Below are positions 12,755-50,809 of a stretch of 64,000 bases of DNA, piece after piece (within the stretch, counting starts at the first letter, position 1; each line of letters begins with the position of its first letter). The notes beneath the pieces are model-generated. The model did no database searches. It worked only from the letters and a program-made list of their open reading frames with translations, and was not told the DNA's origin. Source of the DNA: Sanghuangporus weigelae (taxonomy: Eukaryota > Basidiomycota > Agaricomycetes > Hymenochaetales > Hymenochaetaceae); assembly GCA_033182465.1 (NCBI GenBank), contig CP137327.1, positions 62,001 through 126,000 on the forward strand. Direction: 5' to 3'. Position numbers and translations under genes: made by a program.

Positions 12755-14278
12755 TCAAAGGTATTCTAGGGCAGCCCCTCGAACTTTATATTCCCTGTCC
12801 GGTATCAGAACGCCCACAGGAGTTTCATCGGTGAGGAGCTTCAGACCGATATCCAAACCACTCCTTCCTCCGATAGCGTGAGTCGACGATTGTTCCTAAG
12901 AGATTATAAGCAATTATAAATCCTTGAAAGAAAGTGCTAAAACTCACTTCTGCCATCCTCCGTTGCAGATCGTCATTTGTGGCTTGGTTATGCAGGGTAA
13001 TCAGCGTATCGGTGCGGATGGCCAGCTCCACATGCGCCTGAAACAACTCACGGATGCAGGGTGCCACCTGCCGAATGGCAGCCAAGTACCCCCGGTAGAA
13101 ATCAGAGCTGCCGATGGCCTGCTCATTCAGAGCTCTGGACACAGACATATTCCATGTAGACATGGGCACCCGCAATTCCGAGAGGGTGCCTTATACCCGA
13201 TTATAAGTACAACGAGAATGAACTCTACATAAGAGAAAATTCTTACCTCCATCCTGAGGAACTTGGATATCTAAGACAATCTCAGAACAAGTCAAGGAGA
13301 ATGGAGGATGAGGACCCACATAAACTCTGGTTTTCGGTAGTGCCCTCAAATGACATGTTGGTCGTGGTTAGAGGGGAACAGATATCGATCTTGATATCGA
13401 TCAATTGACACGATCTCATGGGCATGGGAAAGCAAAGTCATGCCGTGAGACCAGATAGATACTTATGGACGCTTCATCAAAAGGAAGCATTCTCTTCAAA
13501 AAAACTCACCAAAAGTGACTGCTGCTTCATAAGCGAGAATCAGAGCTTCTTTGATTATTTCTGGCTCTGCCGGCAACGATCTCTATTTATAGTTACAGTT
13601 ACACATATGAAATGCGAGCATTGCATTGAAGCTGCTTGGGCCGCACTGGTGAAAGCGTTTCCTGAGTGTATGGAACACTTCTAATCGAAACAAATAAGCG
13701 CACAATGCAAGGAAAGGGGCAAGGTAAACAATCGCACCTACCGTTCATCGATCGTGTTCATCAGCGCTATATCCTTTAACGAGTTTGCCAATGCCTTCGT
13801 TGGAGTCGAGGTACCATGCTAGAACACTTGTGGTAATCTTCTTAAACTGCGGCGAGGTGGCGTTCTGACGCACATCATTATGTCGTGTCGCGATTTGATG
13901 TTCATTTTGCGCAAAGTGCCCCCCTCGTAATCTAGAACAACGAGTATCGATCGTCTTTCATTGAGAGCATACTGGACCTTAATTTTACGTTCGAGATTTC
14001 TCATGAGGCACATGTAAGATAGAACCGATGGGTCGCGTCCATTACGTCCATTATCCGGTTGTACATCAAATGCGATGGCTATCAAATCGTCAGATTGCCA
14101 TACTACTATGACGGTCAACACGCCAGCGTTTAAGGCCAAAAGTGATTCCAAATGCGCTCGGTGTTGACTTCGTCAAAATCAGCTTTCGGCCAGCATCTTC
14201 ATTAGTTGTTCGGGCAAAGCGGTATGTTCTCATGACAAAGACGACGACGAATATTGAGTACTTTATGGAACTAGGCAC
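12755..14278 (-). CDS. Multi-exon hypothetical gene, possibly decayed at its 5' end
   Basis: The C-terminal exons are well supported. A last exon ending at TGA 12755-12757 (product ends RGAALEYL) follows a 52-nt GTGAGT...TTAG intron. The exon before it (MSVSRALNEQAIGSSDFYRG region, about 12953-13187) follows a 57-nt GTAAGA...AAG intron with matching phase. The next exon carries SEIVLDIQVPQDG, and another carries EPEIIKEALILAYEA before a GTGAGT donor. Further upstream (about 13760-14151) the coding signal jumps frame near 13875 (from MMCVR to RQNATSPQFKK), which could be a frameshift or an unrecognised intron. No family recognised; the start is unknown. Confidence 0.5.
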
Positions 14279-14309
14279 GGTTCCCTGCCTGCAAGAAGAA
14301 ATAAAATAA

Positions 14310-15400
14310 ACTTGTCAGATTCTCCAAAGCCTGGACTTGATTACGGAGAATGCAAGTTCAATAGGATTGTAGTCTGGTGAGTAAGGAGGAAGAAATTCAA
14401 GCCTGACACCCCTAAGCAAAGGGGTCAGTACAAGCTGCGACTTGCATTGCTAGTGAGACAGACCGAGATTCGATGAGCTCCCGGATCTCGGGAGCCTTGT
14501 GTATTGGGCAGTTGTCCATCACGATGACTGATTAGGTGCCGGGGAAGGGATGCATTTTGTCCAACAGGCCGGCAATGAATTCCACGAACAGTTTGGTATT
14601 GAATGCGCCCTGTATGATAGTGCAGTCGATTGTCCTGTCGAGGCTGATAGCTGGCAAGACGGAGAAGCTAACGGAGTGAATCAGAAGCTTGCGACGTGCC
14701 ACAAGAGGCAGAATCACCATTTCCCCCTATTGAAAAACTGCTTGCGACACGCACGGCGACCCTCAAGAGCTCAAGCAGTGTTGCGAAGAAAAGCCCGCCG
14801 ATCGCAAGCACTCTCATTGACAAACACCAGCTGTTCCGCTGTGTACTGAGAGGCAATACGTGCGACGTACTGTGCACGCAGAGTCTCATTCCACTCGAGA
14901 GCCCTTTTCAATAACTAGACAACGACGATTTCAGTTCGCGTGGACTGTGTGAGGAAGCAAAGCGACAGAGACAGCCACCTTCTTAAGTGTGAAACCAGCG
15001 CACAGCAAGGACCTGCGTATAGTCGCATGCGAGACCTCCTTCTCCCATCTTTCCTGGAGCAGTAGCCTCAACTCGTCGATGTAACGGTCATTGAGATTGC
15101 TTAGTGACCCGCAAAGGAACTACGTGGTGTGAACCAACAGCTACCAGGACAGGTTTCAACATGTGCATACCTCGGTGTGGATATAATCAAGCACTCGAGG
15201 CCTTCCACGAAAACCAAGTTCATGTGCAGCAACAGTCCCGTTGCACTTGAACTCTCGTATTATCCGGAAAACTGTTGTCTTGGGTATGTCGATCAAGGCT
15301 GCGATCTGAGAGGCGCTGAGTTTCTTGTTCATAGTGATGATGCATTCCCGTAAATTGTTGGACAGCCTTCTGCCGCGTCGCCGGGGTTGCATGAACGAAT
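14310..15400 (-). pseudogene. Decayed IS630-Tc1-mariner transposase
   Basis: Reading on -, a helix-turn-helix N-terminus (KLSASQIAALIDIPKTTVFR, about 15200-15330) is followed by remnants matching the transposase in the arms of the large element: FVNESACDRR (first catalytic D region), VLPAISLDRTIDC, VMDNCPIHK (second D) and PPYSPDYNPIELAFS (third acidic residue). Stops interrupt it between the first D and LPAISLD, and just before VMDNC. It is clearly related to, but well diverged from, the copies at 39647 and 46779. I could not define terminal repeats, so this is a solo relic. Confidence 0.8.
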
Positions 15401-16394
15401 GCTCAACATAAGCTGTAGAGATGGTGGCTGTGAAGATGGTGATGGCTCGAGATCAAGTGGCAACTCGACACGTGAGTCCTCAAATGCGTCGCTGCCTCCT
15501 ATCTCTTTGCCGTGGTGCCTCGTCTCTCGTGATGGTCCGTCCCCAACAACTGGGGGTTCCCTCATGCCTGTGGGTGATGAGGGATTGGTGAGGGTGAGGA
15601 GGGAACTGTAGACAAGTGATGAGAGCTGCTGTGCAGGGAGATGCTGCGTACAAAAGACTACCGTCGTGTGTGTACACTCATGTTTCTCTGAGAGATGTTT
15701 CTGCGGCCCTGGCAGGCACGCTCGGTTTGGTTGCAGCAGGAGTGCATGATGGCCGAGCCGACCTTGTTCGCCCTCGCCCAGATATGATTTTGGGTGACAT
15801 TTCAGCAGAGGATGGTCACCGGGGTGGTTTCAAGTCTGATTGGTAGATAGTACAAGTAATGTAGCCACACCCAAGCTTAAGTCAGCTCAGCTACTGTCTT
15901 GGCTCAAAGCGCCTATGCTGCTGTCTTTTTAGCAGAAACAATCAGATTTTTTGGTGTCCAAATGCGTGAGTTATGACAGATGCAATGAAGTAGGGGAGAG
16001 TTCTGTGAGCAGGAGTGACAACAAACCACCCAGTTTCACTACCACAATCATGTCAGGGAGCCTCGAGGAGTTGCGTACAGGTGCCCACTGGGCTGGCCTG
16101 ATTTATCAAACTTGAATCAGATTTTTCCGGATGATGTTGGGCAAGCTACGATTTTTACACTGAACGGAGGGCATGATAAGGATTTAGCATTATGATGCTA
16201 TCTTTTTAGTAGCGAAGTACATACTCAACAAAACCCAGACATTTTTATATGTACTGGAGCGCATATTCAAGCAGGTTTTTTACATAGTTATATCAGATTT
16301 TTATGTGCTGTATTGACTGAGATATTCGCTATTTTGTTTTTTTTTGCTTATCCAGGATGCACTTTGCATCAAAAATACATGTGATTTTCCAAAT
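15401..16394. other. No gene recognised
   Basis: Short open frames only, with low-complexity Ser/Pro-rich translations and no recognisable domain. From about 15840 it becomes AT-richer and resembles decayed MITE sequence. Confidence 0.4.
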
Positions 16395-16421
16395 TGCCAA
16401 CAATTTTGCAATTAGCTGTAT
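16395..16421. repeat. Orphan terminal repeat of a family B-like element
   Basis: The stretch ending in CAATTTTGCAATTAGCTGTA closely resembles the right terminus of the complete family B element at 50735-50763. Its partner end was not found, so this is probably a decayed earlier insertion lying just left of the next copy. Confidence 0.45.
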
Positions 16422-17021
16422 GTGCCTAAATGCATTATTACAGCTGTTTGCAAAAGTAATGAGAATCATGTAATTTTACCACTTTTCTCACCATGAGAGC
16501 CTCAAAACACAGATAAAATCATATCTCACCCAAATCTCAACGGTTTCACATTATCTAAGTTGCTAAATTCATCTTTTTGAAAGGGCTTTTGCTTAAAGAA
16601 AACTGTAGAGAAAATAGAGCGAAAAATGACCCAAAAATGGCGAAAATATTGGTTTTTGCCTCTTCCTTGCATGTGCATTTTTTTCTGTGATCCCTGCTGG
16701 TCCAGCACCTCCCCAAAGCTATCCAGAATGATAATATGATTATAAAATGAATTTACAGACTGAGTTTGAGTTGAATTGTATACCAGAATGTGCTGCTTTG
16801 AGGCATGCCTGAATTACTCAAAACTCATCATTTCCCCCTAGCCTCCCAGGCTGCAGGAAAAATTCTTACAGGCCAGATTCATGCATGTAAATTCATTTTG
16901 AATATAATAGACTAGGTTTGTGTACTAGCTAAGGCCTCAGCATCCACTGGTGAGCTGGGCTGAACAAGTGATTCTGGTTGTATGCATCATTTTAGACAGC
17001 ATCTTCCTAGCTCACCAGTGG

Positions 17022-29235: not shown

Positions 29236-29580
29236 GAGGCCTTAGCTAGTACACAAACCTAGTCTATTATATCCAAAATGAATTTACATGCATGAATCTA
29301 GCCTGTAAGAAGTTTTCCTGGAGCCTGGGAGGCTAGGGGGAAATGATGAGTTTTGAGTGATTCAGGCATGCCTCAAAGTAGCACATTCTGGTACACAATT
29401 CAACTCAAACTCAGTCTGTAAATTCATTTTATAATCATATTATCATTCTGGATAGCTTTGGGGAGGTGCTGGACCAGTAGGGATCACAGAAAAAATTGCA
29501 CATGCAAGAAAGAGGCAAAAATCGATATTTTTGCCATTTTAGGGTCATTTTTTGCTCTATTTTCTCTACAGTTTTCTTTA

Positions 29581-30340
29581 CTGCCTTTTTTATATGTATT
29601 GCCACTCGCGATTTCTGTGATTTTTGTCACACAGAACACCTCAAAATATAAAAATCACCATATCTTATTCAATTCTTGACCGTTTTGCATGATATAAGTT
29701 TCTAAATTCATAGTTTTAAGATATGGTTCAAACTCCAACAGGGATGGAGAGAAATGAGCAAAGAATGAGTGAGATATGTCATAAAAGGTCGATTTTAGAC
29801 ACTTCCTTCATGTGCAGTTTTTCCTGCCCTCAGACTGGGTGCTACAACAACCTAGACTGCACCAAAGTGAGGCTATTGGTATAATATGAACTTACAGACA
29901 TCAGATTTCCTAAGAATAAATTTATTTTGAGGTCTGAGGGTCCTTAAGAAAAGGTAGGTTTGAGCTCAGCTCAAACATGCATCAAACTAGCAGATACAAC
30001 ACAGAATAGAGCTCAAAGTCAGCCTGTAAACTTAAAATAAAATAATCATATCATTTTGAACTTGCTTATAGGACTGTAAAAGCAGGGATGAGGGCAGGAA
30101 AAACTGCATATGAAAGATGTGTCTAAAATCGGCCTTTTACGACATATCTCACTCATTCTTTGCTCATTTCTCTTCATCCTTATTAGAGTATGAAACATTT
30201 TCAAAAACTATGAGTTTAGCAACTTAGATTATGCAAAGCAGTCAAGAATTGAGTGAGATATGATGATTTTTATATTTTGAGGTGTTCTGTGTGATAAAAA
30301 TCACAGAAGTCGTGAGTGACAATACATATGAAAAAGGCAG
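29581..30340. mobile_element. Palindromic MITE, family C (760 bp)
   Basis: Starts CTGCCTTTTTTATATGTATT and ends with the inverted counterpart at 30340, flanked by TA on both sides. The empty site is visible in the opposite arm of the same host element near 16590-16600, where the sequence runs uninterrupted. The two halves are inverted repeats, with a short unique centre. It is noncoding. Its ends match the ends of the 11.1-kb element at 37655-48771. Confidence 0.9.
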
Positions 30341-30495
30341 TAAGCAAAAGCCCTTTCGAAAAGATGAATTTAGCAACTTAGATGATGTGAAACTGTTGAG
30401 ATTTGGGTGAGATATGATTTTATCTGTGTTTTGAGGCTCTCATGGCGAGAAAAGTGGTGAAATCACGTGATTCTCATTACTTTTGCAAACAGCTG

Positions 30496-36989: not shown

Positions 36990-37897
36990 CAGTCATTAAC
37001 CGGTCCTTTGAACACCTATTACAGATCCACTTTTGTAGCTCACCACGTAGCAATTTTCTCAAAACTGAGTGCATACTCCAATTGTCTACCATGAGATACA
37101 CCTGCTAATTTTTTTCCCAGTCATAACATAGACAGGAAAAATTAATATGGCCAATAGAAAACTATAGGTGACTGTCATATAATACGGCTCCTTTGAACAC
37201 TGTGTGAGACATTACAAAATGCCTAATATCGGCTAATTTGCTGACTTGGCATAACAACGTCGATCACATTATGTAAAATAAAGAGCTTGTGTATCTGTCA
37301 CATTTTTTGCTTGTTTGGCTTGCATTAATTTACTGAAAGCATATTCCTCCATGAAAATATAAGGTAAGACACTTATAATAGAGTGATATTAGCTAATAAA
37401 CTCAGAATCCACATTGGTTGACAGAAAAATGCACAGGACCAATTTGATCAGAGTGAGGTTTACTGGTTTTACATAAATTTGACCAGTGTCTAATTTTTCC
37501 TGACCCAACAACTTGCCCGATTTACTTAAAAATTTGGATATCAATTCAGATATACACTTTGCATCTGCAACATTTTTCTTGTGGTGAGGGATGAAGAATT
37601 AAGTGAGAAAACGTAAGGTGTTTAAAGGAATGGTACTGTTTAAAGGACCGGTTACTGCCTTTTTCATAAGTATTGTCACACCTGCGTTTCACGTGCTCTG
37701 ATGTGTCCGAGCCAAAACAGCAAAAACTCAAGTAAATAGTGATTTTCTCTGTCAATTCTGCATGTTTCATGCCCAATTAGCACTCAAAAAAACGAGCTAG
37801 TTCGCCCATATAGATGTATGTAGAAATATTTGTGATTTGTTGCCTGTGTGTGTCGGAACAAAACAAACAACTTCACCGAGCCGTGCTCCAAAGGGAT

Positions 37898-38177
37898 ATC
37901 TGGACTGCTCGCAATATTATTCCTCCTCACACAAGCTATAATATATTTTTCCTCTGATCCATAAATTAAGTCTATAAACATGGCACTGCTCTGGCGAAGT
38001 TTCGTGTCATTTTGTGCAGTGTTTGTGTGGGAAACATCAGGCAATTTCGTCAATCCTTGTTCCAGCAGATCATCTGGACTGTTTAAAAAATCATTCCTCT
38101 TCACACAAGCCAGTCATAGTTTTTCTCTTGATCTGTAAATTAGGTCTATATGCTTTGCAATGCTCTGGTAAGGTTTT
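37898..38177. repeat. Subterminal direct repeats in left arm
   Basis: Two diverged copies of about 105 nt, starting near 37898 and 38072 (period about 174), share TCTGGACTG, ATTCCTC.TCACACAAGC and CAATGCTCTGG-like blocks. A further partial unit may follow. They are mirrored at 48249-48528. Subterminal repeats commonly bind transposase; that role here is inferred. Confidence 0.6.
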
Positions 38178-38989
38178 CAATATGTTCTGTGCAGTATTTG
38201 TGCAATAGTGCAAGTGTCTTTTGTCTCCGCAGCATTCTCAGGACCCCTTTCTGGTGCTGCAACTGCCCCGGGACTGTCATTTGAAGGCAACAAATCCTAA
38301 ACTTGCTTGTATCTGAAGAAATCATTATAGTATTCATTCCCTATGCTTGATGTGATGCTTCTATTTATGCAATCTACGAGAGGCTGTGGCTCACTCCTAC
38401 CTGCATCGATTTCCGCACCTTTCCAACACATCCTGCTTCATCACAATACTTCTCCGTCGCAGCCAGATAGCATCTCTAGTATGCATGAGCAGAACGAGGG
38501 ACAGTGAATGCCATGGTGCTACGGGTGACAGTACGGGATCGACGCAGTCCAGAGATGCAGTCAGACAGCAAATCCGGTGGACCCACCGTCAATTCCGCTC
38601 ACAATCACAGACACCTGGCTGCACCTTGACATACTTCTCTTTCCTTCCCCGTTGTCACCACAGTGGGTCATCCCACCTATCTGACCTTATTTCAGCTGTG
38701 CCAAAGAGGTAAGAAGCAGCAAGCCAGGTAAGTAGCACGTACCTTAGCGTTTGCGACTGTACCGTATCCACTCACCATTCAATGGTCAAGCAAGTGATGG
38801 CGCCAATGGTACTGCTATATCCTGTGCGAACATCGTGGCCATTGCAATCGAACTTTCTCTAACAGAGCCTCCGAGTCCAATCGCCGCATATTCAATTGGC
38901 TGTAAGTCGATTTTCTATTTCCACAGGCCTCTCAGGCCCTCACGCATGCTCTGCCCAGAATAAAATCTGCAGCAAATGAACCATTGCCG

Positions 38990-39558
38990 TTATGGTCGTC
39001 TGCTTTCTCCATTCAATTCGCCAAGTAGGCCTTCTTTGTCTGTGACAGAGATGCTCTTCCAATGCTCCTGGAAGAGTTGGATGTGTTGCAAATAGCGACA
39101 GCTTACCAGGCTCTGCACATCTTCGTGCAATCTCAGATACAGAGACAGGAAGTCTGCATCAGTACCGATAGCGGAGAGATGAGATAGGGATGAGAAGAGA
39201 CATACCGAAACCGATAAAGCAAGAGGATGCCACAGGGACACGAGACAGCAACAAATTCAGTGCATGCAAAGCACCTGGATTGAGCCACACAGGAGCTAGC
39301 TCATGGTTTTCGTAGACGTACTCAGCCACCCTCGTCTGCAATGAACAAAAAGGTGTATCTGAACCAGTCAAAGCCGCCTGAGCATATGCATCATCATACA
39401 TGTAACTTCACCCAGGTTCCTACTAGCCAGATATCATTCTGTTTTGTATCTATTGCCACCGGGAATCTGTTCAGACCTATGGGAATAATCCATTTGAGCC
39501 ATCTCCAGAGCTGCCAACAGTGCGTGGAGGAGCTAAAAGACACACGACAGACAGACAT
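38990..39558 (-). CDS. Arm gene B (left copy), unknown function
   Basis: A small gene divergent from the transposase. The best-supported part has two exons joined in phase over a 52-nt GTATGT...TGCAG intron, linking SSCFIGF to LSLYLRLHEDVQSL and ending at 38990. The start is either ATG 39401 or ATG 39558; the latter needs a 34-nt intron (39378-39411). The product is about 135-170 residues, hydrophobic and aromatic, with no recognised domain. The same gene is in the right arm. It could be a transposition accessory protein or a passenger; I cannot tell. Confidence 0.55.
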
Positions 39559-39646
39559 AGATGTAAACCAAAGAGAAGTGATGATTACGGCACGTGCGTC
39601 ATGCTGTGAGTGTGTGTGACGCCTTTCTGCTTTTGGCATAACCACC

Positions 39647-40865
39647 ATGACCCGCGGAAAGCCTTCTTCAAATGATGCCCGACAGATCATACAGAATCTG
39701 TTTGAGGCCAAGGAGTTCAGTGTAAATCATCTTTCCGCTCTGACGGGCATCAACTGCCGGACAATATTCCGCATCAACCAGCAGGTTCAGGAGACTGACA
39801 GCGTCGAGAGAGACGGTTCGCGGACAGGAAGGCCAAGGATACTGGAATATCCGGATGTCCATGTGAGCCCTCTGAGTGTATTGTCGCCTGCTAAGCTGCT
39901 CATTGTGCTGTCAGTATCTACTCAGTGCCGTTGACTTCCATAGGGATCTGTTTCTTGATGAACTTAAGAACATGTTAGGTGGAGCGTCCGGTAAATTCAT
40001 CTCGGATTCGACGGTATGGTGGACGCTAGAGCGCGCGGGCTTCACAATGAAGAAGGTGCGGCCTTCTTTGGCAAGCAAAGATGTTCATATCTATCTGACC
40101 AAGTCCAGATCACGAAGAAAGCGTGAGAACAAAGCGAAACTGCGCAAATAGAATACCACCTCAAGATAGGCTTGCAATACACCCCTGAGCAACTCGTATT
40201 TGTCGATGAGAGTGCCTGTGACCATCAAACCTTCTTACAAAACAAGGCGTGGGCCTTGCATGGCCATCACGCTACTCGGAAACAGTTCTTTGCTAGGGGA
40301 AAAAGGTGCGCTGCGTTACAGCAATTAAATTACACGAGCCGGAACTCAATTTGCATAGGTATTCGGTTCTTCCCGCCATCTCTCTGGATGGGATGCTTGA
40401 ATGCATTATCATGGAAGGCTCGTTCAATGCGGACTCCTTTGCAGCGTTCATCGATACTCTCCTAGACAGCATGCAGCCTGGCTGGCGAGGAACTCGGTCG
40501 TTATCATGGACAATTGCTCTATTCACAAGTCCGATGAGGCATGCCAACTCATTGAATCCAGGTGAGATGGTCTTCCTGCTGGGTCATCATGCAGGCTATT
40601 CATCGTGCCGTGTCTGTTTAGGGGCATGAAGCTTGAGTTCTTGCCGGCATACTCTCCTGACTTCAACCCAATCGAGCTGGTGTTTTCGTTGCTCAAATCC
40701 CGACTTTGGCGCGTTCCTCTGCCAGAGGGTGGAGGTGATGCCACGGTCTACAACAGGCTTTATGGAGAGGTTATGTCAATCAGTGTGGCCGACTGCTGTG
40801 CCTTCTATGAACACTGTGGATATGGTTGGTGTGTGGTTTGTTTTCTGATTGATCGGGAGGGATAA
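39647..40865 (+). pseudogene. IS630-Tc1-mariner transposase (left arm copy), frame-broken
   Basis: From ATG 39647: N-terminal helix-turn-helix (NHLSALTGINCRTIFR), then an exon with RDLFLDELKNML, then the catalytic core. The first D is in FVDESACDH, the second in VIMDNCSIHK and E in YSPDFNPIEL. Exactly 34 residues separate the second D from the E (DD34E), counted across an intron at about 40562-40620. Another intron (40306-40357) joins RGKR to YSVLPAISLDG. Apparent frame breaks near 40150 and near 40475 (a one-base deficit before WLARNSVV) are shared with the right arm copy. The product is probably inactive unless these are unusual introns. Confidence 0.85.
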
Positions 40866-41295
40866 CTGATTTACATTCTATGCTATTACTGCGACTATAG
40901 GTGAATGTGGTTTATATATGTAAGCAACTATGTTTATCTATGAGCTAGATTGAATCATAGTGCAGTCTTGTTCTGCATAACAAATGTGTCTTATGACTTC
41001 TGAGGTATAGTAACATCAAAAATCAATTCAAGATGCTTAATTTGAGAAGACATTGTGTACGCTTATATTGTTTATTGATTCGACTCTCAAGCTCATACAG
41101 ATAATTCAATTCCATACATAGCCACCCTTCATTTCTCTGCGTGCTAAAAGGATAACAGGTAAAAACTGAGAAACATCGAAATAGTATCATAAGTAAGTAA
41201 TCATCTCGGCAGACTCAAATTGAACACAACTACAATGATCAAGGCGAGCGTGACAAAATAAACATAGGTATCAAACAATGAGCCAACCACATACA

Positions 41296-42399
41296 TCAAA
41301 TATATTCTTCATACTCAAATCTTTCTTGCATGAAATCGAAAATATCTAACAACCCACTCCTCTTCGTGAGAGGTGCCGTCACGGCGCTCTCGTCGAAGCA
41401 ATTTGTTTTGTCTATAGCCTGATTCCAGGCAGCCAGCTTGTCCTCATCGAAGTTGATTGGAATTTGGATGCCATGAGCAGCGACGCTTCCCATATCCCAC
41501 AGATCCTCTCCACCGACAAGAACAAACCAAATGACTTCCGGCTTCTCGAGTAGTCGGTACACAAACTGGACGTAATTGAGGTATAGTCCTAGCGACTCTG
41601 TCGTCAACGTCCATTTAATGTGGTCACAGACGTATTTGACTTCCTTCTTGAATTTATCTGCATTGAAAGGCCTTCTTTCTGTAATCTGCTGGTTCCTCAT
41701 AACAGAAAAGAAACAACTCATGCCGCTCTGCCATGCCTGGACCGCTTCCGTATCCAACTTCGGCAATTTCTTAGATTTAGGAACAGCAGCCAGAACACTT
41801 TCGAGAGAGCCCTTCACCACTCTTGGCCACCATCGATCCCACATGTTGGTATCAAAATGATTTTTGCCTGAGGTGAATGGCGCGAAGTAATTTTCGTCCG
41901 ATGCAGTTGACCCAGCCTTGCTAATAGGCCCAGACCCAGAACCAGAAAGTTGTGATGCGACCGACATTGGTGAGAGGAGTAGCCCAGCTGGCGTTCCTGG
42001 TGTTCTTGGCATGGCTGATGTTCCTGGTGTTCTTGGCATGGCTGGCGTTTCTGGTGTTCCTGACATGGCTGGCATTCCTGGTGTGGCTGGTGTTCCTGGT
42101 GTGGCTGGTGTTCCTGGTGTGGCTCTGACATGGCTGGCATTCCTAGTGTGGCTGGTGTTCCTGGTGTGGCTGGTGTTCCTGGTGTGGCTGGTGTTCCTGG
42201 TGTGGCTGGTGTGACTAGCGCAGCCAGTTACTTCAAACTAAGGATTGTTGTCTTGGGTTTGGAAATGTATGGTCTGATCGATTTATCGTCATTGCCATAG
42301 AACGACCTTGCAACAAGCTGGCAGATACTCTGCTCCTCGGATTGCAAGAACCACTGAAAGAAGTGATTCAAGAAAAAAAACAATCCTTGCGCAAAACAT
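41296..42399 (-). CDS. Central cargo gene C, unknown, repeat-containing
   Basis: Predicted as exon 42399-42307 (MFCARIVFFLESLLSVVLA start, signal-peptide-like) and exon 42237-41296, joined in phase over a 69-nt intron with a weak GTCGTT donor, giving 344 residues. The N-terminal part of exon 2 is translated from an 18-nt tandem repeat, read first as His/Thr/Ser/Arg-rich and then, after an indel, as Thr-Pro-Gly/Ala-rich. The C-terminal 200 residues are globular, with Trp-rich segments (MWDRWWPRVVKGSLESVLAA, VIWFVLVGGEDLWDMGS). I recognise no family. The C-terminal region is well supported; the start is tentative. Confidence 0.55.
41990..42225. repeat. 18-nt minisatellite within gene C
   Basis: Repeats of GGTGTGGCTGGTGTTCCT (two similar 9-nt halves) with interspersed variant units containing GACATGGCTGGC. 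The unit is a multiple of three, so copy changes would alter protein length without a frameshift, except at the GTCAGAG junction near 42125. Confidence 0.85.
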
Positions 42400-42499
42400 T
42401 GTCGTCCTCCGTCGATTATTTGTCTTCGAATGATTGCATGATAATTGGGGGCGGACTATGAAAATGAATAAGCACTCTCTTTGAAAAGGGAAAGAAGTT

Positions 42500-42921
42500 T
42501 CATACGTTATAGCTCAAGTATTTTTCCATGGACTGCACTCGACCTTGCAAATTGTTTTGATTCCGAGCTCCGTCCTTAAGCTTTACGTCGTGGTCCTCAA
42601 TCTTTATGTGGTGATCCTGGCTTCTTGCCATCAAATCGTCTATACTGGCCTGCATCTCCGCAATTTTCATTTCAAGCTCCACTTGCTGTCTGGAAAGTTC
42701 AGATTTCCTCTGCAATGCCAGATTAAAGAATTCACTTGCATGGTGTGCAAAGCGCTTCTTCGTGGGACGGTTATATCACGCCAGATCGCTCCCATCACCC
42801 ATTATTTTATTGACAGCACTGTATATTTTTTGTCCAGTCTCTGCTGCAGAAATAGTCATCAGAGTGATGGTCAAAACGATATGGCAGACAGCGACATACA
42901 ATCTGAATCAATCTCTGACAT
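42500..42921 (-). CDS. Central cargo gene E, small coiled-coil protein
   Basis: Three exons join in phase: 42921-42900, 42843-42780 and 42734-42500, with introns of 56 nt (GTATGT donor) and 45 nt, giving 106 residues. It starts MSEIDSDSETGQKIYSAV and is followed by a long helix with heptad spacing (QVELEMKIAEMQASIDDLMA) typical of coiled coil. No catalytic motif. It lies upstream of gene C on the same strand and is divergent from the 595-residue gene starting at 43480. Possibly a multimerisation partner; the function is not known. Confidence 0.6.
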
Positions 42922-43479
42922 TTCAAAAACTTTTTCCACCCCCAAGAGCCGGTGTCTGGGGTGTGCGTACTGCAACATTTCAACAAAAATTCTGAGATCA
43001 GATATCGAAAACCTCAGGGATGGAGGAGAGGGAAGTGGGAGGACTGATGGGGGTGGGGACTTTGGGTGCCATCGCTCACCTATCTCATATAATGGGAATG
43101 CGGTGAGAGTTAGAAGTGATCAGAGGCAGTCGAAAGTGCTTTTCTTCCCGCTGGGAGAATATATAGTGCATGAGAAGCGATATCATCTCCGATGTCTCAT
43201 GTGGCACTTGAACATTTAGTAGAATTCGGAAAGTCGGAGTTTCAAGCGGTCAAAATCAAGCGACATCTAATAGAACTCTATATGGGGTCCTTTGGTCTTT
43301 GGAAGGGAGGATGGATCCTGAATGAACACACCACAGAGGAGCTCTACAACATGAACCAGTAGACTTGTCTGCCATACATGGGTGGATCATGGGCAGCGTT
43401 GAACTGAACTGCAAAGTGAAAATCACGTTTTGCATTTTTTTCTCAGGTTCAGGTTGATTCCTTTGTACCATCATCAACA
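42922..43479. promoter_or_regulatory. Divergent intergenic region between cargo genes E and D
   Basis: About 560 bp between two divergent start codons with no ORF of its own that fits intron or codon patterns. It presumably holds both promoters; no specific motif can be assigned. Confidence 0.35.
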
Positions 43480-45488
43480 ATGCCTCCTTCTTGCAGCAAA
43501 AAGCTCACTGAAAAGGCCAAGGCAACCCAGGACGCCAAGGCCCTTAAGAACGAGCCAAAGGTCAGGAGGGGTCCTGGGCGACCACGCAAAAATGATAAAG
43601 CGCCGGCAACTCCGGAAACGCCACAGAAGAGCCCTCGCAAGAAAAAGGGGAAAGGCGCGTCAAAAAAAAAGGTGCATTCCTAGTGCGGGTGGCGCTCAAA
43701 TTGGTACTGACACCTCTCCTCAGTTGCGCAATTCTGATGATACTATTGATTCGGATGATGATGATAACTCCGACGACGACTACCAGCTGGATGGAGACCT
43801 ATCTGTCAATGACATGGTGCAAGTCGCAAATGAAACCGGCCCGGACGAAACAACACAGTATAGGGAAGAACCGGACTTCTCCATACTAGAATACGAGCAA
43901 GTCGAAGGTGAGCGCTATTAGCCGCCGTCCCAATGATGAAAGGAAGGCTTATCATCTATCAAAGCAAATAATGACAGCATTTCATTTGGAACGGCCGCGG
44001 CTCGGGGTCTCCTTGACCCCATCACTTCAACTCCCGCAAGGAGGAAAGACCCTGTTACTTCAACTCCCGCAAGGAGCAAAGACTCTGTTACTTCAACTCC
44101 CGCAAGGAGCAAAGACCCTGTTACTTCAACTCCCGCTGTACGGAAGAGCAAACGCGACACTATTACTGTGAAAGTCTTGGTTTCCAATGGGGTTGGCGGA
44201 TGGGAGCTGCTTCTGAGTTCCGACATGTTCCTGCATGAGGTCATATCCGAAATCACGGATCTGACACGAGGTTCCTGCACCATTTCCCACCTAGGTGTTG
44301 AAGGTCCATGGTGTAGGAAAGAAGGCCCAAACAAGTATCTTCCAGAGTATCTTGATACCCAAGCAGCATTGAATAAAATTTTCGATGAGGTACGCAAGCA
44401 CCGGAAGGAACAGAACAAAAAGAAGACAAATGCGCCCAATCCCAAAATCATTGTCAGAAATCTTCCTGGGTTTGATGTTTGTCCATGTGAAATCTCATTT
44501 ATCTATCTCATTTGACTGGACTGATCTTTATAGGACACAAATGCAACGAAGAAGAAGGGAAAACAGGTAACGGCAACAAAATCGGCGCCCGCACAGCTCA
44601 ATGATGCTCAGGACACCTACAAGGAGTCTATGGCCAAAATTGCGGCCAAATTGGAAGCAAGTTTCAAATGTGACGAGCACGGATGTTTGTGTGCAAGATT
44701 ACCAGGTGCACGCAACCATATTACATACACCCATCGGGATATTGAAGAACATGCAAGACTACTTGTGAGTGGGTTGCCAATATGCTGTGTGCTTTTCACA
44801 CATATGCTTCTCAATCTAGTACCGGAATGTCCCAGGCATAACTTATGATGCTCCGCCTGGGGCGCTTAAACTTCTAGATCGGAAGCCTCTGGATTCATAC
44901 TCAGCCAGAGCTGCTATTGAGAGGATCCCGAAACCATCTGCTCCCGCATTTAGTCCATCTGAAGCAGGACAGCCACTGACCCAACCAGCCACCCTTGGTA
45001 TACAAACAACGCCTGCAGAGCCATCCACAGTTGCAGCACAGCACCCGCCAAATATGCAATTCCCGGGTTTCATGCACCTGGCAATAATCCAACAAGCACT
45101 GTCCTCAATGCAATTCCCATCCATGATGCCACCCATATACCCATTCATGATGCCGCCACTGACCCCTATGCAGCTTCCATTCATGGGACCAGCTATGCAT
45201 AATAATGCAGCTAGGAGAAGACCCAGAGATTGGCCACTGGTTGGCAATTGGCTTGAGTCTCTCCATGATGACATCGAAAGGGGCAAGGAACCATGTCCTC
45301 CGTATCGTACATTTTGCGAACCATTCGAAAAGAGAGGCTACCTTCGACTCGACGATATTCAACACATCACCAAAGAAGAGCTGCAGGAGATAGCCGATGC
45401 GGACAATTTAGACGTGACAATTGGGCTCATTAATCGGATTCTTCGCTACGCAGAACAAGACTGCACTATGATTCAATCTAGCTCATAG
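43480..45488 (+). CDS. Central cargo gene D: AT-hook protein with SAM-like C-terminus, 595 residues
   Basis: Five exons (43480-43671, 43724-43907, 43965-44476, 44534-44764, 44820-45488) join in phase with 52-57-nt introns and total exactly 596 codons, so the gene looks intact. The N-terminus is Lys/Arg/Pro-rich with an AT-hook (RRGPGRPRK, residues about 29-37), then an acidic Asp/Ser run, then four TSTPARSKDPV-type repeats. A globular domain (KVLVSNGVGGWELLL) follows, and near residue 350 a Cys/His segment (FKCDEHGCLCARLPGARNH). A Met/Pro-rich linker leads to a SAM-like helical domain (NWLESLHDDIERG to NRILRYAEQD). The last 12 codons are encoded by the right inverted arm. DNA binding is inferred; its role in the element is unknown. 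Confidence 0.82.
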
Positions 45489-45560
45489 ATAAACATAGTT
45501 GCTTACATATATAAACCACATTCACCTATAGTCGCAGTAATAGCATAGAATGTAAATCAG

Positions 45561-46779
45561 TTATCCCTCCCGATCAATCAGAAAACAAACCACACACCAA
45601 CCATATCCACAGTGTTCATAGAAGGCACAGCAGTCGGCCACACTGATTGACATAACCTCTCCATAAAGCCTGTTGTAGACCGTGGCATCACCTCCACCCT
45701 CTGGCAGAGGAACGCGCCAAAGTCGGGATTTGAGCAACGAAAACACCAGCTCGATTGGGTTGAAGTCAGGAGAGTATGCCGGCAAGAACTCAAGCTTCAT
45801 GCCCCTAAACAGACACGGCACGATGAATAGCCTGCATGATGACCCAGCAGGAAGACCATCTCACCTGGATTCAATGAGTTGGCATGCCTCATCGGACTTG
45901 TGAATAGAGCAATTGTCCATGATAACGACCGAGTTCCTCGCCAGCCAGGCTGCATGCTGTCTAGGAGAGTATCGATGAACGCTGCAAAGGAGTCCGCATT
46001 GAACGAGCCTTCCATGATAATGCATTCAAGCATCCCATCCAGAGAGATGGCGGGAAGAACCGAATACCTATGCGAATTGAGTTCCGGCTCGTATAATTTA
46101 ATTGCTGTAACGCAGCGCACCTTTTTCCCCTAGCAAAGAACTGTTTCCGAGTAGCGTGATGGCCATGCAAGGCCCACGCCTTGTTTTGTAAGAAGGTTTG
46201 ACGGTCACAGGCACTCTCATCGACAAATACGAGTTGCTCAGGGGTGTATTGCGAGCCTATCTTGAGGTGGTATTCTATTTGCGCAGTTTCGCTTTGTTCT
46301 CACGCTTTCTTCGTGATCTGGACTTGGTCAGATAGATATGAACATCTTTGCATGCCAAAGAAGGCCGCACCTTCTTCATTGTGAAGCCCGCGCGCTCTAG
46401 CGTCCACCATACCATCGAATCCGAGATGAATTTACCGGACGCTCCACCTAACATGTTCTTAAGTTCATCAAGAAACAGATCCCTATGGAAGTCGACGGCA
46501 CTGAGTAGATACTGACAGCACAATGAGCAGCTTAGCAGGCGACAATACACTCAGAGGGCTCACATGGACATCCGGATATTCCAGTATCCTTGGCCTTCCT
46601 GTCCGCGAACCGTCTCTCTCGACGCTGTCAGTCTCCTGAACCTGCTGGTTGATGCGGAATATTGTCCGGCAGTTGATGCCCGTCAGAGCGGAAAGATGAT
46701 TTACGCTGAACTCCTTGGCCTCAAACAGATTCTGTATGATCTGTCGGGCATCATTTGAAGAAGGCTTTCCACGGGTCAT
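45561..46779 (-). pseudogene. IS630-Tc1-mariner transposase (right arm copy), frame-broken
   Basis: Mirror of 39647-40865, convergent with gene D. It has the same helix-turn-helix, FVDESACD, VIMDNCSIHK and YSPDFNPIEL motifs, the same introns and the same apparent frame breaks (near 46276 and 45951). It differs from the left copy at scattered bases, for example H to R after FVDESACD, T to M near FISDS and S to C near PSLA. Confidence 0.85.
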
Positions 46780-46867
46780 GGTGGTTATGCCAAAAGCAGA
46801 AAGGCGTCACACACACTCACAGCATGACGTACGTGCCGTAATCATCACTTCTCTTTGGTTTACATCC

Positions 46868-47436
46868 ATGTCTGTCTGTTGTGTGTCTTTTAGCTCCTCC
46901 ACGCACTGTTGGCAGCTCTGGAGATGGCTCAAATGGATTATTCCCATAGGTCTGAACAGATTCCCGGTGGCAATAGATACAAAACAGAATGATATCTGGC
47001 TAGTAGGAACCTGGGTGAAGTTACATGTATGATGATGCATATGCTCAGGTGGCTTTGACTGGTTCAGATACACCTTTTTGTTCATTGCAGACGAGGGTGG
47101 CTGAGTACGTCTACGAAAACCATGAGCTAGCTCCTGTGTGGCTCAATCCAGGTGCTTTGCATGCACTGAATTTGTTGCTGTCTCGTGTCCCTGTGGCATC
47201 CTCTTGCTTTATCGGTTTCGGTATGTCTCTTCTCATCCCTATCTCATCTCTCCGCTATCGGTACTGATGCAGACTTCCTGTCTCTGTATCTGAGATTGCA
47301 CAAAGATGTGCAGAGCCTGGTAAGCTGTCGCTATTTGCAACACATCCAACTCTTCCAGGAGCATTGGAAGAGCATCTCTGTCACAGACAAAGAAGGCCTA
47401 CTTGGCGAATTGAATGGAGAAAGCAGACGACCATAA
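46868..47436 (+). CDS. Arm gene B (right copy), unknown function
   Basis: Mirror of 38990-39558 with the same intron and product. Substitutions seen include E to K in YLRLH(E/K)DVQSL, with no new stop. Same uncertainty about the start. Confidence 0.55.
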
Positions 47437-48780
47437 CGGCAATGGTTCATTTGCTGCAGATTTTATTCTGGGCAGAGCATGCGCGAGGGCCTGAGAGGCC
47501 TGTGGAAATAGAAAATCGACTTACAGCCAATTGAATATGCGGCGATTGGACTCGGAGGCTCTGTTAGAGAAAGTTCGATTGCAATGGCCACGATGTTCGC
47601 ACAGGATATAGCAGTACCATTGGCGCCATCACTTGCTTGACCATTGAATGGTGAGTGGATACGGTACAGTCGCAAACGCTAAGGTACGTGCTACTTACCT
47701 GGCTTGCTGCTTCTTACCTCTTTGGCACAGCTGAAATAAGGTCAGATAGGTGGAATGACCCACTGTGGTGACAACGGGGAAGGAAAGAGAAGTATGTCAA
47801 GGTGCAGCCAGGTGTCTGTGATTGTGAGCGGAATTGACGGTGGGTCCACCGGATTTGCTGTCTGACTGCATCTCTGGACTGCGTCAATCCCGTACTGTCA
47901 CCCGTAGCACCATGGCATTCACTGTCCCTCGTTCTGCTCATGCATACTAGAGATGCTATCTGGCTGCGATGGAGAAGTATTGTGATGAAGCAGGATGTGT
48001 TGGAAAGGTGCGGAAATCGATGCAGATAGGAGTGAGCCACAGCCTCTCGTAGATTGCATAAATAGAAGCATCACATCAAGCATAGGGAATGAATACTATA
48101 ATGATTTCTTCAGATACAAGCAAGTTTAGGATTTGTTGCCTTCAAATGACAGTCCCGGGGCAGTTGCAGCACCAGAAAGGGGTCCTGAGAATGCTGCGGA
48201 GACAAAAGACACTTGCACTATTGCACAAATACTGCACAGAACATATTGAAAACCTTACCAGAGCATTGCAAAGCATATAGACCTAATTTACAGATCAAGA
48301 GAAAAACTATGACTGGCTTGTGTGAAGAGGAATGATTTTTTAAACAGTCCAGATGATCTGCTGGAACAAGGATTGACGAAATTGCCTGATGTTTCCCACA
48401 CAAACATTGCACAAAATGACACGAAACTTCGCCAGAGCAGTGCCATGTTTATAGACTTAATTTACGGATCAGAGGAAAAATATATTATAGCTTGTGTGAG
48501 GAGGAATAATATTGCGAGCAGTCCAGATATCCCTTTGGAGCATGGCTCGGTGAAGTTGTTTGTTTTGTTCCGACACACACAGGCAACAAATCACAAATAT
48601 TTCTACATACATCTATATGGGCGAACTAGCTCATTTTTTTGAGTGCTAATTGGGCATGAAACATGCAGAATTGACAGAGAAAATCACTATTTACTTGAGT
48701 TTTTGCTGTTTTGGCTCGGACACATCAGAGCACGTGAAACGCAGGTGTGACAATACTTATGAAAAAGGCAGTAATGACTG

Positions 48781-50809
48781 TATTCCTTATGGGATCTTGA
48801 TTTCTGTTCAGCTCACATCTCTTTATGTAGCCTGGTTGCCATTACACTATTCTGCGCTATAGTAGCGATCAGTGCTATTGCGAAGACTCAAAGTGCATTG
48901 GGAACTAGATAAAGCATTCCTTGGTAGATTGATCTCTTCATTGCTTAGAACATATCATATTACAGCAGCTTGGAGACATTCGTAGTTGTTCAGCAAACAA
49001 TACGGCACCTCTCGCAATAGTTGCTATAGAGTCGACCGTAAGTATTTATTCATGAAAGCAGAAATCCTATACGTGACAAATTTCATAGCTGGCTCTGGAT
49101 ATTGCGGCTTTTTTTCTTCTTCTGAATGCATTGTCTCAACCCCGCACTGAAAGTCAACATCTACTATGGGTTTTGTATCAAGATGGAATGATTTTCTTTT
49201 TGGTGAGACCCATTTTCACTCCTTTGTATACAAAGAACTGATAAGGTTCCATTTGATTGGCAGGCGACAGTAGGTAAGCGTTCTTAGTCGCATACAATCT
49301 CGATCTCAAAATGAGACTCTTATGTGCTTCTAACATAATCAGCCATGAGACTTATGAATGTCATAATCATGGCAATTTCAATTTCGCAGGTAAATTGATC
49401 TTTTTTTGGCATTCCTTCCACTCCCTGACAAGCAGTTTAGATAGGCCTATTTTACATGGGTATTATGTTAGCTTCACACATCATACTCGAGCCGTACAAC
49501 AGCTCACACCCTCTTTTTTCAGATTCTCAGGGACTCTAGTGATAACATTGTCATGCCAATTACTGCTAAGCTTTTCACGGCGCGAGGCAGATGAAGAATC
49601 ATTCGTCGACACGAACGCGGAAAAAGTAACGGGAAAGCGGTTCTCTTCCTGTGACTCAAGATGGTCGCACGATTATTACAGCTAGTTGCAAAATTGTTGG
49701 CAATCATGTGATTTCACCACTTTTCTCGTTATAAGAGCCTCAAAACACAGATAAAATCATATCTCACCCAAATCTCAACGGTTTCACATCATCTAAGTTG
49801 CTAAATTCATCTTTTTGAAAGGGCTTTCGTTTAGGAAAAACGATCGAGAAAATAGAGCAAAAAGTGACCCCAAAATGGCGAAAATATGTTTTTTTGCCTC
49901 TTCCTTGCATGTACATTTTTTTCTGTGATCCCTGCTGGTCCAGCACCTCCCCAAAGCTATTCAGAATGATAATATGATTATAAAATGAATTTAAAGACTG
50001 AGTTTGAGTTGAATTGTGTACCAGAATGTGCTGCTTTGAGGTATGCCTGAATCACTCAAAACTCATCATTTCCCCCTAGCCTCCCAGGCTGCAGGAAAAA
50101 TTCTTGCAGGTCAGATTCATGCATGTAAATTTATTTTAGATATAATAGACTAGGTTTATGTGCTAGCTAGGTCCTCAGCATCTACTGGTGAGCTGGGAAG
50201 ATGCTGTCTAAAATGATACATACAACCAGAATCTCATGTTCAGGCCAGCTCACTAGTGGATGCTGAGGACCTAGCTAGCACATAAACCTAGTCTATTATA
50301 TCTAAAATAAATTTACATGCATGAATCTGACCTGCAAGAATTTTTCCTGCAGCCTGGGAGGCTAGGGGGAAATGATGAGTTTTGAGTGATTCAGGCATAC
50401 CTCAAAGCAGCACATTCTGGTACACAATTCAACTCAAACTCAGTCTTTAAATTCATTTTATAATCATATTATCATTCTGAATAGCTTTGGGGAGGTGCTG
50501 GACCAGCAGGGATCACAGAAAAAAATGTACATGCAAGGAAGAGGCAAAAAACATATTTTCGCCATTTTGGGGTCACTTTTTGCTCTATTTTCTCGATCGT
50601 TTTTCCTAAACGAAAGCCCTTTCAAAAAGATGAATTTAGCAACTTAGATGATGTGAAACCGTTGAGATTTGGGTGAGATATGATTTTATCTGTGTTTTGA
50701 GGCTCTCATGGTGAGAAAAGTGGTGAAATCACGTGATTGCCAACAATTTTGCAACTAGCTGTATGACAGAGACCAAGATTCATTACAGAGCAGGTGGTTT
50801 GACGAATGA
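48781..50809 (+). pseudogene. DUF6533-type membrane protein gene, 3' part (interrupted)
   Basis: After one copy of the TA is removed, the frame broken at 36989 continues directly: FFIVY is followed by IPYGILISVQLTSLYVAWL. Downstream exons include a LLWVLYQDGMIFFL segment near 49161-49200, matching the R-D-G-x-x-F stretch common late in this family, and a final exon SCQLLLSFSRREADEESFV. That exon enters a second MITE at 49679 and resumes after it at 50762, ending at TGA 50807-50809. Both joins are in frame, so the gene was probably intact before the insertions. Confidence 0.72.
49679..50761. mobile_element. Palindromic MITE, family B copy 2 (1083 bp, complete)
   Basis: Ends CAGCTAGTTGCAAAATTGTT and its inverse, flanked by TA (49677-49678 and 50762-50763). 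The arms pair over about 500 bp each around a short spacer near 50200-50240. It is noncoding and is inserted in the last exon of the DUF6533-type gene. Confidence 0.92.

What the first reader, a model, noticed from the sequence alone, without database searches (positions are those of the whole stretch)
37655..48771. An 11.1-kb palindromic Tc1-mariner-type transposon with 3.3-kb arms and a cargo module
Seen: identical outer ends flanked by TA, arms of exactly 3322 bp each with a constant mirror sum (86426), a DD34E transposase plus a second gene in each arm, and a 4473-bp centre with three non-transposase genes. Known: IS630-Tc1-mariner elements are normally 1-3 kb with one gene; large cargo-bearing members are rare. 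Inference: a previously undescribed class of large palindromic cargo transposon in basidiomycetes. This is my main candidate for a new system.
Basis: partly seen in the sequence, partly recalled or inferred. Interest (0 to 1): 0.88.

Follow-up and report, generated by a model that had tools for sequence, protein, structure and literature searches.

The report
Palindromic multi-gene fungal Tc1/mariner transposon
This is a genuine jumping gene from a Sanghuangporus mushroom, several times the usual size for its kind, whose two ends are long mirror images that each carry a copy of the enzyme gene for moving it and that seem to evolve together as a pair.

Summary
Window 37655-48771 is an 11,117-bp element with 3,322-bp inverted arms (23 mismatches). 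It is a real transposon: 12 of 12 fetched copies of the repeat it landed in show the uninterrupted site, giving a clean insertion with a TA duplication inside TTAA. The same arms and centre recur at C2b (both ends) and C2a (right arm cut short); C1 and C12 hold remnants. The host is a Sanghuangporus, most likely S. weigelae. The arm gene is a DD34E IS630/Tc1 transposase with four introns, intact in C2b; both arms here share a 1-nt deletion.

"Cargo" is doubtful: all 34 gene-B matches in this genome lie in or beside transposase-bearing elements of five families, so gene B looks like machinery. All five have long inverted arms; in F1-F3, and partly in a damaged F4, the arms cover the transposase. 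In the trees the arms of one element are sisters in 9 of 9 elements (7 well supported; 6 of 9 also by raw distance), so arms are probably copied onto each other. A new variant of Tc1/mariner.

The parts
37653..37654 (.). left TA target-site duplication (target TTAA)
   Evidence: 12 of 12 fetched empty copies of the target repeat read GGACCGGT-TA-ATGACTG without insert
37655..40976 (+). left arm, 3,322 bp
   Evidence: found again in whole or part at C2a, C2b, C1 and C12 of the host assembly
45450..48771 (-). right arm, 3,322 bp
   Evidence: 23 mismatches to the left arm, 22 of them transitions
48772..48773 (.). right TA target-site duplication
37831..38202 (+). subterminal direct repeat, two ~200-bp units about 70% alike (mirrored in the right arm); possible transposase-binding region (inference)
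39647..40865 (+). DD34E-type transposase gene, left-arm copy, 5 exons by my splice model; a 1-nt deletion in exon 4 shifts the frame before the second D in this copy
   Evidence: frames, alignment of copies, intact homologue, Pfam DDE_3 106.4 bits on that homologue
45561..46779 (-). DD34E-type transposase gene, right-arm copy, same 1-nt deletion
41296..42237 (-). gene A, main exon (313-aa ORF with a Pro/Thr-rich repeat at its N-terminus); function unknown; upstream exons not worked out
   Evidence: 3 matches in this genome, the three copies with this centre; 2 S. weigelae proteins
43480..45488 (+). gene B, 595 aa, exons 43480-43671, 43724-43907, 43965-44476, 44534-44764, 44820-45488; AT-hook-like GRPRK near the N-terminus (motif recalled), SAM-like C-terminus (weak); last codons inside the right arm
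   Evidence: reading frame intact in 3 of 3 copies, dN/dS 0.25-0.52; relatives in and beside transposons
29579..30342 (.). 764-bp MITE sharing only the ~25-bp ends of this element

Best explanation
A large DNA transposon of the IS630-Tc1/mariner group in a Sanghuangporus fungus, grown to 11.1 kb. It carries a transposase, gene B and gene A between terminal repeats that have expanded inward until they took in the transposase gene and the last codons of gene B. Shown: the unit went as one block into a TTAA site and duplicated the TA; ~764-bp MITEs carry the same ends; differences are mostly shared by both arms of an element. Inferred: the transposase binds the two ends and cuts and pastes the whole unit. 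Because the ends are long inverted repeats, the gap left on excision, or a break inside an element, is at times repaired by copying one arm onto the other. That keeps the arms alike and now and then moves the arm's inner border across a neighbouring gene, which doubles the transposase. The window copy has the same broken transposase in both arms, so it would now depend on a transposase from another copy.
For: Empty sites, 12 of 12 fetched. Same arms and centre at C10, C2b and (right arm cut short) C2a; arms at C1, whose centre carries a retroelement; fragments at C12. Intact 333-aa transposase in C2b with 83 and 34 residues between D, D and E, Pfam DDE_3 106.4 bits against a cut-off of 28.6. 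75 of 78 ends of this type are preceded by T-TA, the other 3 by TA after another base (one search had found 81 ends). Long inverted arms in four other families: F2 2,094 and 2,085 bp, F3 1,575 bp, F4 946 bp, F5 1,389 bp. Neighbouring arms in inverted order: F2 14 of 16, F5 16 of 17 (see its limits in the full report). Arms of one element are sisters in the tree in 9 of 9 elements, support 0.92 or more in 7; informative sites F2 58 whole-element, 5 same-arm-type, 15 mixed; F1 107 against 14. All five transposases fall in one clade (100/99) with two database proteins, one from S. vaninii.
Against: No assay of movement or arm exchange. By raw distance only 6 of 9 elements have their own two arms as closest relatives: C13_L is nearer to C12 arms, C1y_R nearer to C12_R, and C2a_L nearer to C2b_L. 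Two tree pairings are weak (C2b 0.10, C1y 0.54). The F2 re-pairing control still scored up to 46 against 58. Whether arms are matched at transposition or by later conversion is open: within-element divergence runs from 0.33% to 4.3%. True outer ends and TA of F3 and F4 were not established; the F4 example is damaged. The transposase rests on my splice model, not on RNA.
Confidence: 0.82

Rival explanations
1. Composite element: two complete 3.3-kb Tc1-like transposons in opposite orientation that trapped DNA between them, like bacterial Tn10.
For: A transposase in each arm; arms nearly identical.
Against: The end motif occurs only at the outer ends of the element, not at the inner borders of the arms; the third window match is a MITE. 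The inner border cuts gene B in F1 and the transposase itself in F2 and F4. Gene B relatives occur in all five families, and in the F5 example the transposase is single and outside the arms.
Confidence: 0.04
2. Assembly artefact or chromosomal rearrangement rather than a mobile element.
For: Long palindromes are prone to mis-assembly; I could not inspect reads.
Against: Clean TA-flanked insertion against 12 of 12 fetched empty sites; copies with different flanks; genes A and B near each other by locus tag in another S. weigelae assembly, with sequences not identical to the copies here.
Confidence: 0.02
3. The arms are alike only because the copies are young; there is no arm-to-arm copying.
For: Low arm divergence in several elements (0.33-0.69%); elements of one family differ by only about 2-6%; by raw distance 3 of 9 elements do not have their own arms as closest relatives.
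Against: Without exchange, old differences should be shared by arms of the same side. Instead 58 against 5 sites (F2) and 107 against 14 (F1) are shared by both arms of an element.
Confidence: 0.1
4. Genes A and B are captured host cargo.
For: No Pfam match above cut-off for either; gene A matched only the three copies with this centre and has a stop in two of three; homologues found only in Sanghuangporus.
Against: All 34 gene-B matches in the genome (28-38% identity outside F1) lie in or beside a transposase relative; the frame is intact in 3 of 3 F1 copies with dN/dS 0.25-0.52. Gene A may still be a passenger.
Confidence: 0.12

Closest known systems
IS630-Tc1/mariner transposons of basidiomycetes (Tc1-like DDE_3 transposases)
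   Same: DD34E triad, DDE_3 domain, TA duplication, inverted ends, related MITEs; transposase 42-51% identical to proteins of Ceratobasidium theobromae, Panaeolus cyanescens, Dentipellis fragilis and two Mycena species
   Different: 11.1 kb, three kinds of gene, 3.3-kb TIRs. From my own knowledge typical members are 1-3 kb with one gene; Verticillium members are about 2 kb with 41-102-bp TIRs and ORFs that do not overlap the TIRs (PMC3441728, passages seen)
Oxytricha TBE elements (Tc1/mariner)
   Same: Tc1/mariner with three ORFs: a 42-kD transposase and two accessory ORFs (PMC4724952, passages seen)
   Different: TBE TIRs carry the telomeric repeat and lie outside the ORFs; accessory ORFs described as zinc finger/kinase and as unknown; a ciliate
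Galileo / Foldback-like elements (P superfamily, Drosophila)
   Same: Long TIRs of very variable length that can recruit inner sequence (PMC3573991 and PMC4168063, passages seen)
   Different: P-type transposase and 7-8-bp duplications; in D. [quoted passage not shown]
Bacterial composite transposons such as Tn10/Tn5 (recalled)
   Same: A transposase at each end; in family 2 one end has the full-length and the other a C-terminally shortened version
   Different: No inner ends, so the arms cannot move alone by the same ends; gene B recurs across families
Chloroplast inverted repeat and Y-chromosome palindromes (recalled)
   Same: Inverted arms kept alike, with shifting borders
   Different: Those are not mobile

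Membership tests
IS630-Tc1/mariner superfamily | DDE transposase of the Tc1 type with DD34E spacing | tested here: met
   D152, D236, E271 in the C2b copy, 34 residues between the last two; DDE_3 106.4 bits. The window copy itself is frame-shifted
IS630-Tc1/mariner superfamily | TA target-site duplication | tested here: met
   12 of 12 fetched empty sites have one TA, the filled site two
IS630-Tc1/mariner superfamily | terminal inverted repeats | tested here: met
   3,322 bp
IS630-Tc1/mariner superfamily | usual size 1-3 kb and a single gene (recalled; typical, not strictly defining) | tested here: not met
   11,117 bp; transposase twice, gene A, gene B
IS630-Tc1/mariner superfamily | cut-and-paste activity of the transposase | not testable with these tools
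   no bench assay
Galileo/P superfamily | P-type transposase and 7-8-bp duplication | tested here: not met
   DDE_3 transposase; 2-bp TA duplication
Composite transposon (Tn10-like) | each arm is a complete insertion sequence with its own inner end | tested here: not met
   end motif, up to 3 mismatches, only at the outer ends of the element; the third window match is the MITE
Cargo transposon | passenger genes that differ between elements of the family | tested here: inconclusive
   gene B relatives in five families; gene A matched only family 1

The most novel reading that the evidence does not exclude
In this fungal Tc1/mariner lineage the terminal repeat is itself a gene-bearing, self-copying unit. 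Arm-to-arm copying is a regular part of the element's life cycle, so new copies start with matched arms (a clock like that of LTRs). The moving border has made two transposase genes per element; in families 2 and 4 the two share the catalytic region but differ in their C-termini, which could work as transposase and regulator.
Probability: 0.4. Interest if true: 0.72.

Novelty: new variant of a known kind. Interest (0 to 1): 0.58.

Why it matters
Tc1/mariner elements are the textbook minimal transposon: short ends and one gene. Here is a clade, with some thirty inverted arm pairs for two of its families alone in one genome, that carries extra genes and in which the ends have grown over genes. 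It gives a natural series of border positions (outside the transposase, inside it, at its stop codon, past it) for asking how long inverted repeats expand, how they stay alike, and how a large palindromic element survives hairpin formation and silencing. Arm divergence may also give an age for each insertion.

Tried and rejected
Second gene in each arm: outer-arm ORFs do not hold across copies, except one 109-aa ORF. Composite transposon: the arms lack inner ends. C1 copy as an alternative-cargo version: its centre has gag- and protease-like ORFs (read by eye) and direct repeats, so it reads as a retroelement insertion. F5 as a non-palindromic type: my first reading from a 5-kb piece, wrong once the flanks were fetched. 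'Gene B always convergent with the nearest transposase': true for F1, F3, F4 and F5 examples, not for F2, where gene B lies between the two transposases and runs the same way as the nearer one. Pfam gave nothing above cut-off for genes A or B; 'SAM-like' rests on a weak SAM_2 hit (E 0.12) in the F5 relative only and on recalled resemblance. A possible GN..AHP motif shared by third genes was seen by eye only and is not claimed. Structure prediction of gene B's last exon was queued and was not finished; gene A could not be queued. Prior description: ten searches (listings and starts of abstracts seen; one search aimed at Agaricus, a wrong first guess at the host) showed none of transposase-bearing TIRs in this superfamily; most subscription papers, bioRxiv and Repbase were not searched.
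Full report
What is there. The window holds an 11,117-bp unit, 37655-48771, with two 3,322-bp arms that are reverse complements with 23 mismatches. The 30-nt pattern of its ends matches exactly at both; the shuffles gave none. The assembly around it has 33.87 Mb in 13 contigs. The six gene B homologues found are from Sanghuangporus weigelae, S. sanghuang and S. baumii. A published S. weigelae assembly has 33.96 Mb, 13 contigs, a longest contig of 4.49 Mb and an N50 of 2.77 Mb (PMC10803629, passages seen), against 4,491,666 bases for C1 and 2,774,212 for C5. I take the host to be S. weigelae or a close relative; this is an inference. That paper's repeat table lists 45 TcMar and 74 TcMar-Ant1 elements; 'tc1' as a word start does not occur in it.

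It is a transposon. The left flank lies in a repeat: the search with joined flanks gave 45 matches, many running about 10 bases past the junction. Twelve of these were fetched around the junction, and 12 of 12 read GGACCGGT-TA-ATGACTG without interruption; the window reads GGACCGGT-TA-[element]-TA-ATGACTG. So the whole unit went in as a block and duplicated TA. Of 78 ends of this type caught with their flank, 75 have T before the TA and three have another base (without the flank, had caught 81), so the preferred target is TTAA. Many of these ends form pairs about 764 bp apart; the one read, window 29579-30342, shares only about 25 bp at each end with the large element.

Copies. Arms and centre recur at C2b (C2:2895752-2911548, both ends present) and C2a (C2:2693020-2708490, whose right arm lacks its outer 2.4 kb), 94-96% identical, each with a long insertion in the left arm. 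C1:3294017-3310250 keeps arms, but its centre carries a retroelement and no gene A or B match was found there. C12 has fragments.

Genes. By my splice model the arm gene has four introns of 52, 53, 53 and 60 nt. In the C2b right arm it gives 333 residues with D152, D236 and E271, 83 and 34 residues apart, and Pfam DDE_3 at 106.4 bits. The window copy and C2a lack one nucleotide in exon 4 in both of their arms. Gene B (595 aa, five exons) runs towards the right-arm transposase and its last codons lie in the arm. Its frame is intact in 3 of 3 copies with dN/dS 0.25, 0.48 and 0.52, although one donor site in C2a reads AT; gene A has dN/dS 0.49-0.97 and a stop in two of three copies. S. weigelae proteins carry gene B and gene A under near locus tags on two contigs: ACEPAI_1927/1929 and ACEPAI_4105/4104. 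None is identical over its length to a copy here, so that is another assembly or strain.

Relatives in the same genome. The transposase gave 188 matches, not all listed. Gene B's last exon gave 34: 3 in family 1, 1 in F3, 2 in F4, 16 within about 3 kb of an F5-type transposase match and convergent with it, and 12 inside F2 arm pairs (my count). Fetched examples show four more families with long inverted arms: F2 (C13:1434245-1444304 and C6:1309345-1320257; arms 2,094 and 2,085 bp, 97.5 and 99.5%), F3 (C6:819794-828873; 1,575 bp, 98.5%), F4 (C2:1699266-1711507; 946 bp, 95%) and F5 (C7:2568052-2580045; 1,389 bp, 98.4%). F1, F2 and F5 have TA at their ends. The F3 arm's outer end is next to an F2 element on the left and has no TA on the right, and the F4 example is damaged (its left transposase lacks the first ~66 residues and has lost the E), so their true ends are not known.

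Inverted order genome-wide. From the arm matches I used 41 of 48 (F2) and 41 of 69 (F5), leaving out pieces of at most 31 and 184 bp, and merged same-strand pieces under 8 kb apart. F2 then gives 14 '+-' and 2 '++' neighbours within 30 kb, 6 arms unpaired; F5 16 '+-' and 1 '-+', 7 unpaired. Merging hides close same-strand pairs, and the searches scored only 40 of 73 and 40 of 68 candidates, so these are lower bounds and not a clean test of orientation. Both arms were read as sequence in five F2 pairs and one F5 pair.

Where the arm ends. In each family example the inner border falls near the 3' end of a gene. F5: about 60 codons before the end of a gene present in two outward copies, the transposase being single and outside the arms. 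F2: inside the transposase; in C6 the full version goes 43 codons past the border, in C13 the short one stops about four codons past it, still with the DDE region (in the C13 right copy my motif search found nothing). F4: about 12 codons before the left stop. F3: at the stop codon. F1: in gene B's last codons. A tree of 60 transposases puts all five families, S. vaninii P0007 and unnamed P0068 in one clade (100/99), F2 with F4 (99/98); the grouping of F1, F3 and F5 is weak (86/69), and the F3 branch is inflated because I used unspliced pieces. It does not tell whether the transposase was taken in once or several times.

The arms evolve together. In F2, the five elements with both arms fetched (5 of 14 pairs) have arms 0.33, 0.43, 0.48, 2.39 and 2.48% apart; arms of different elements are 1.8-3.6% apart; in the tree each pair is sister (support C12, C2y, C6 1.0, C1y 0.54, C13 0.97). 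In F1, arms are 0.69 (C10), 1.2 (C1), 1.4 (C2b) and 4.3% (C2a, 942-bp overlap) apart, and the four pairs are sisters too (1.0, 1.0, 0.10, 0.93). By raw distance this holds for 6 of 9: C13, C1y and C2a have an arm that is nearer to another element. Sites shared by both arms of an element outnumber those shared by arms of one type 58 to 5, with 15 mixed, in four F2 elements (C12 left out because its arm types could not be told apart), and 107 to 14 in three F1 elements (C2a left out). Re-pairing the F2 arms in the other 23 ways gave at most 46. Nearly all differences are transitions, 22 of 23 in the window element, 16 of them in CpG/TpG context, as methylated DNA would give.

Mechanism. Shown: block insertion with TA duplication, shared ends, gene B in all five families. 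Well supported: exchange between the arms of an element. Inferred: cut-and-paste by the DD34E transposase, and copying of one arm onto the other during gap repair or by gene conversion, which matches the arms and moves the border. Gene B, with a basic AT-hook-like N-terminus (recalled motif) and a SAM-like C-terminus (weak Pfam hit in F5 only), might be a DNA-binding or scaffolding partner; this is a guess.

Compared with what is known. A member of IS630-Tc1/mariner by triad, domain and TA; it differs in size, gene number and gene-bearing arms. Galileo shows that TIRs can recruit inner sequence, but its longest-TIR copies in D. mojavensis lack the transposase ORF (PMC3573991, passages). Oxytricha TBEs are three-ORF Tc1/mariner elements whose TIRs lie outside the ORFs (PMC4724952, passages). 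I found no description of transposase-bearing TIRs in this superfamily in the ten searches named under Tried and rejected.

Noticed in passing
window 49677-50763: A 1.1-kb inverted repeat (arms of 218 and 307 nt, 98-99%) whose ends TACAGCTAGTTGCAAAATTG resemble family 2; looks like a foldback MITE of that family, 0.9 kb from the main element.
   Followed up: partly
window 12828-16423 (minus): Truncated family-2 element: one arm plus part of the centre, 96.7% to the C13 copy.
   Followed up: partly
window 29579-30342: 764-bp MITE with the ends of the main element; many end pairs at the same spacing in the genome.
   Followed up: partly
window 37255-37654 and 48774-48783: The main element sits about 10 bp from the end of another repeat (45 matches to the joined flanks, two of them its own), itself ending in ATGACTGTA.
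   Followed up: partly
L031/L033 (family 2) and L037/L038 (family 4): The two transposases of an element share the DDE region but have different C-termini, a possible activator/inhibitor pair; in F4 the left copy has lost the E.
   Followed up: no
L036:1-95: A family-2 element ends directly at the left end of the family-3 arm; nested or abutting insertions.
   Followed up: no
window 41952-42243: Coding repeat with 9-bp steps (Pro/Thr-rich) in gene A; 119 and 155 nt shorter there in C2b and C2a.
   Followed up: no
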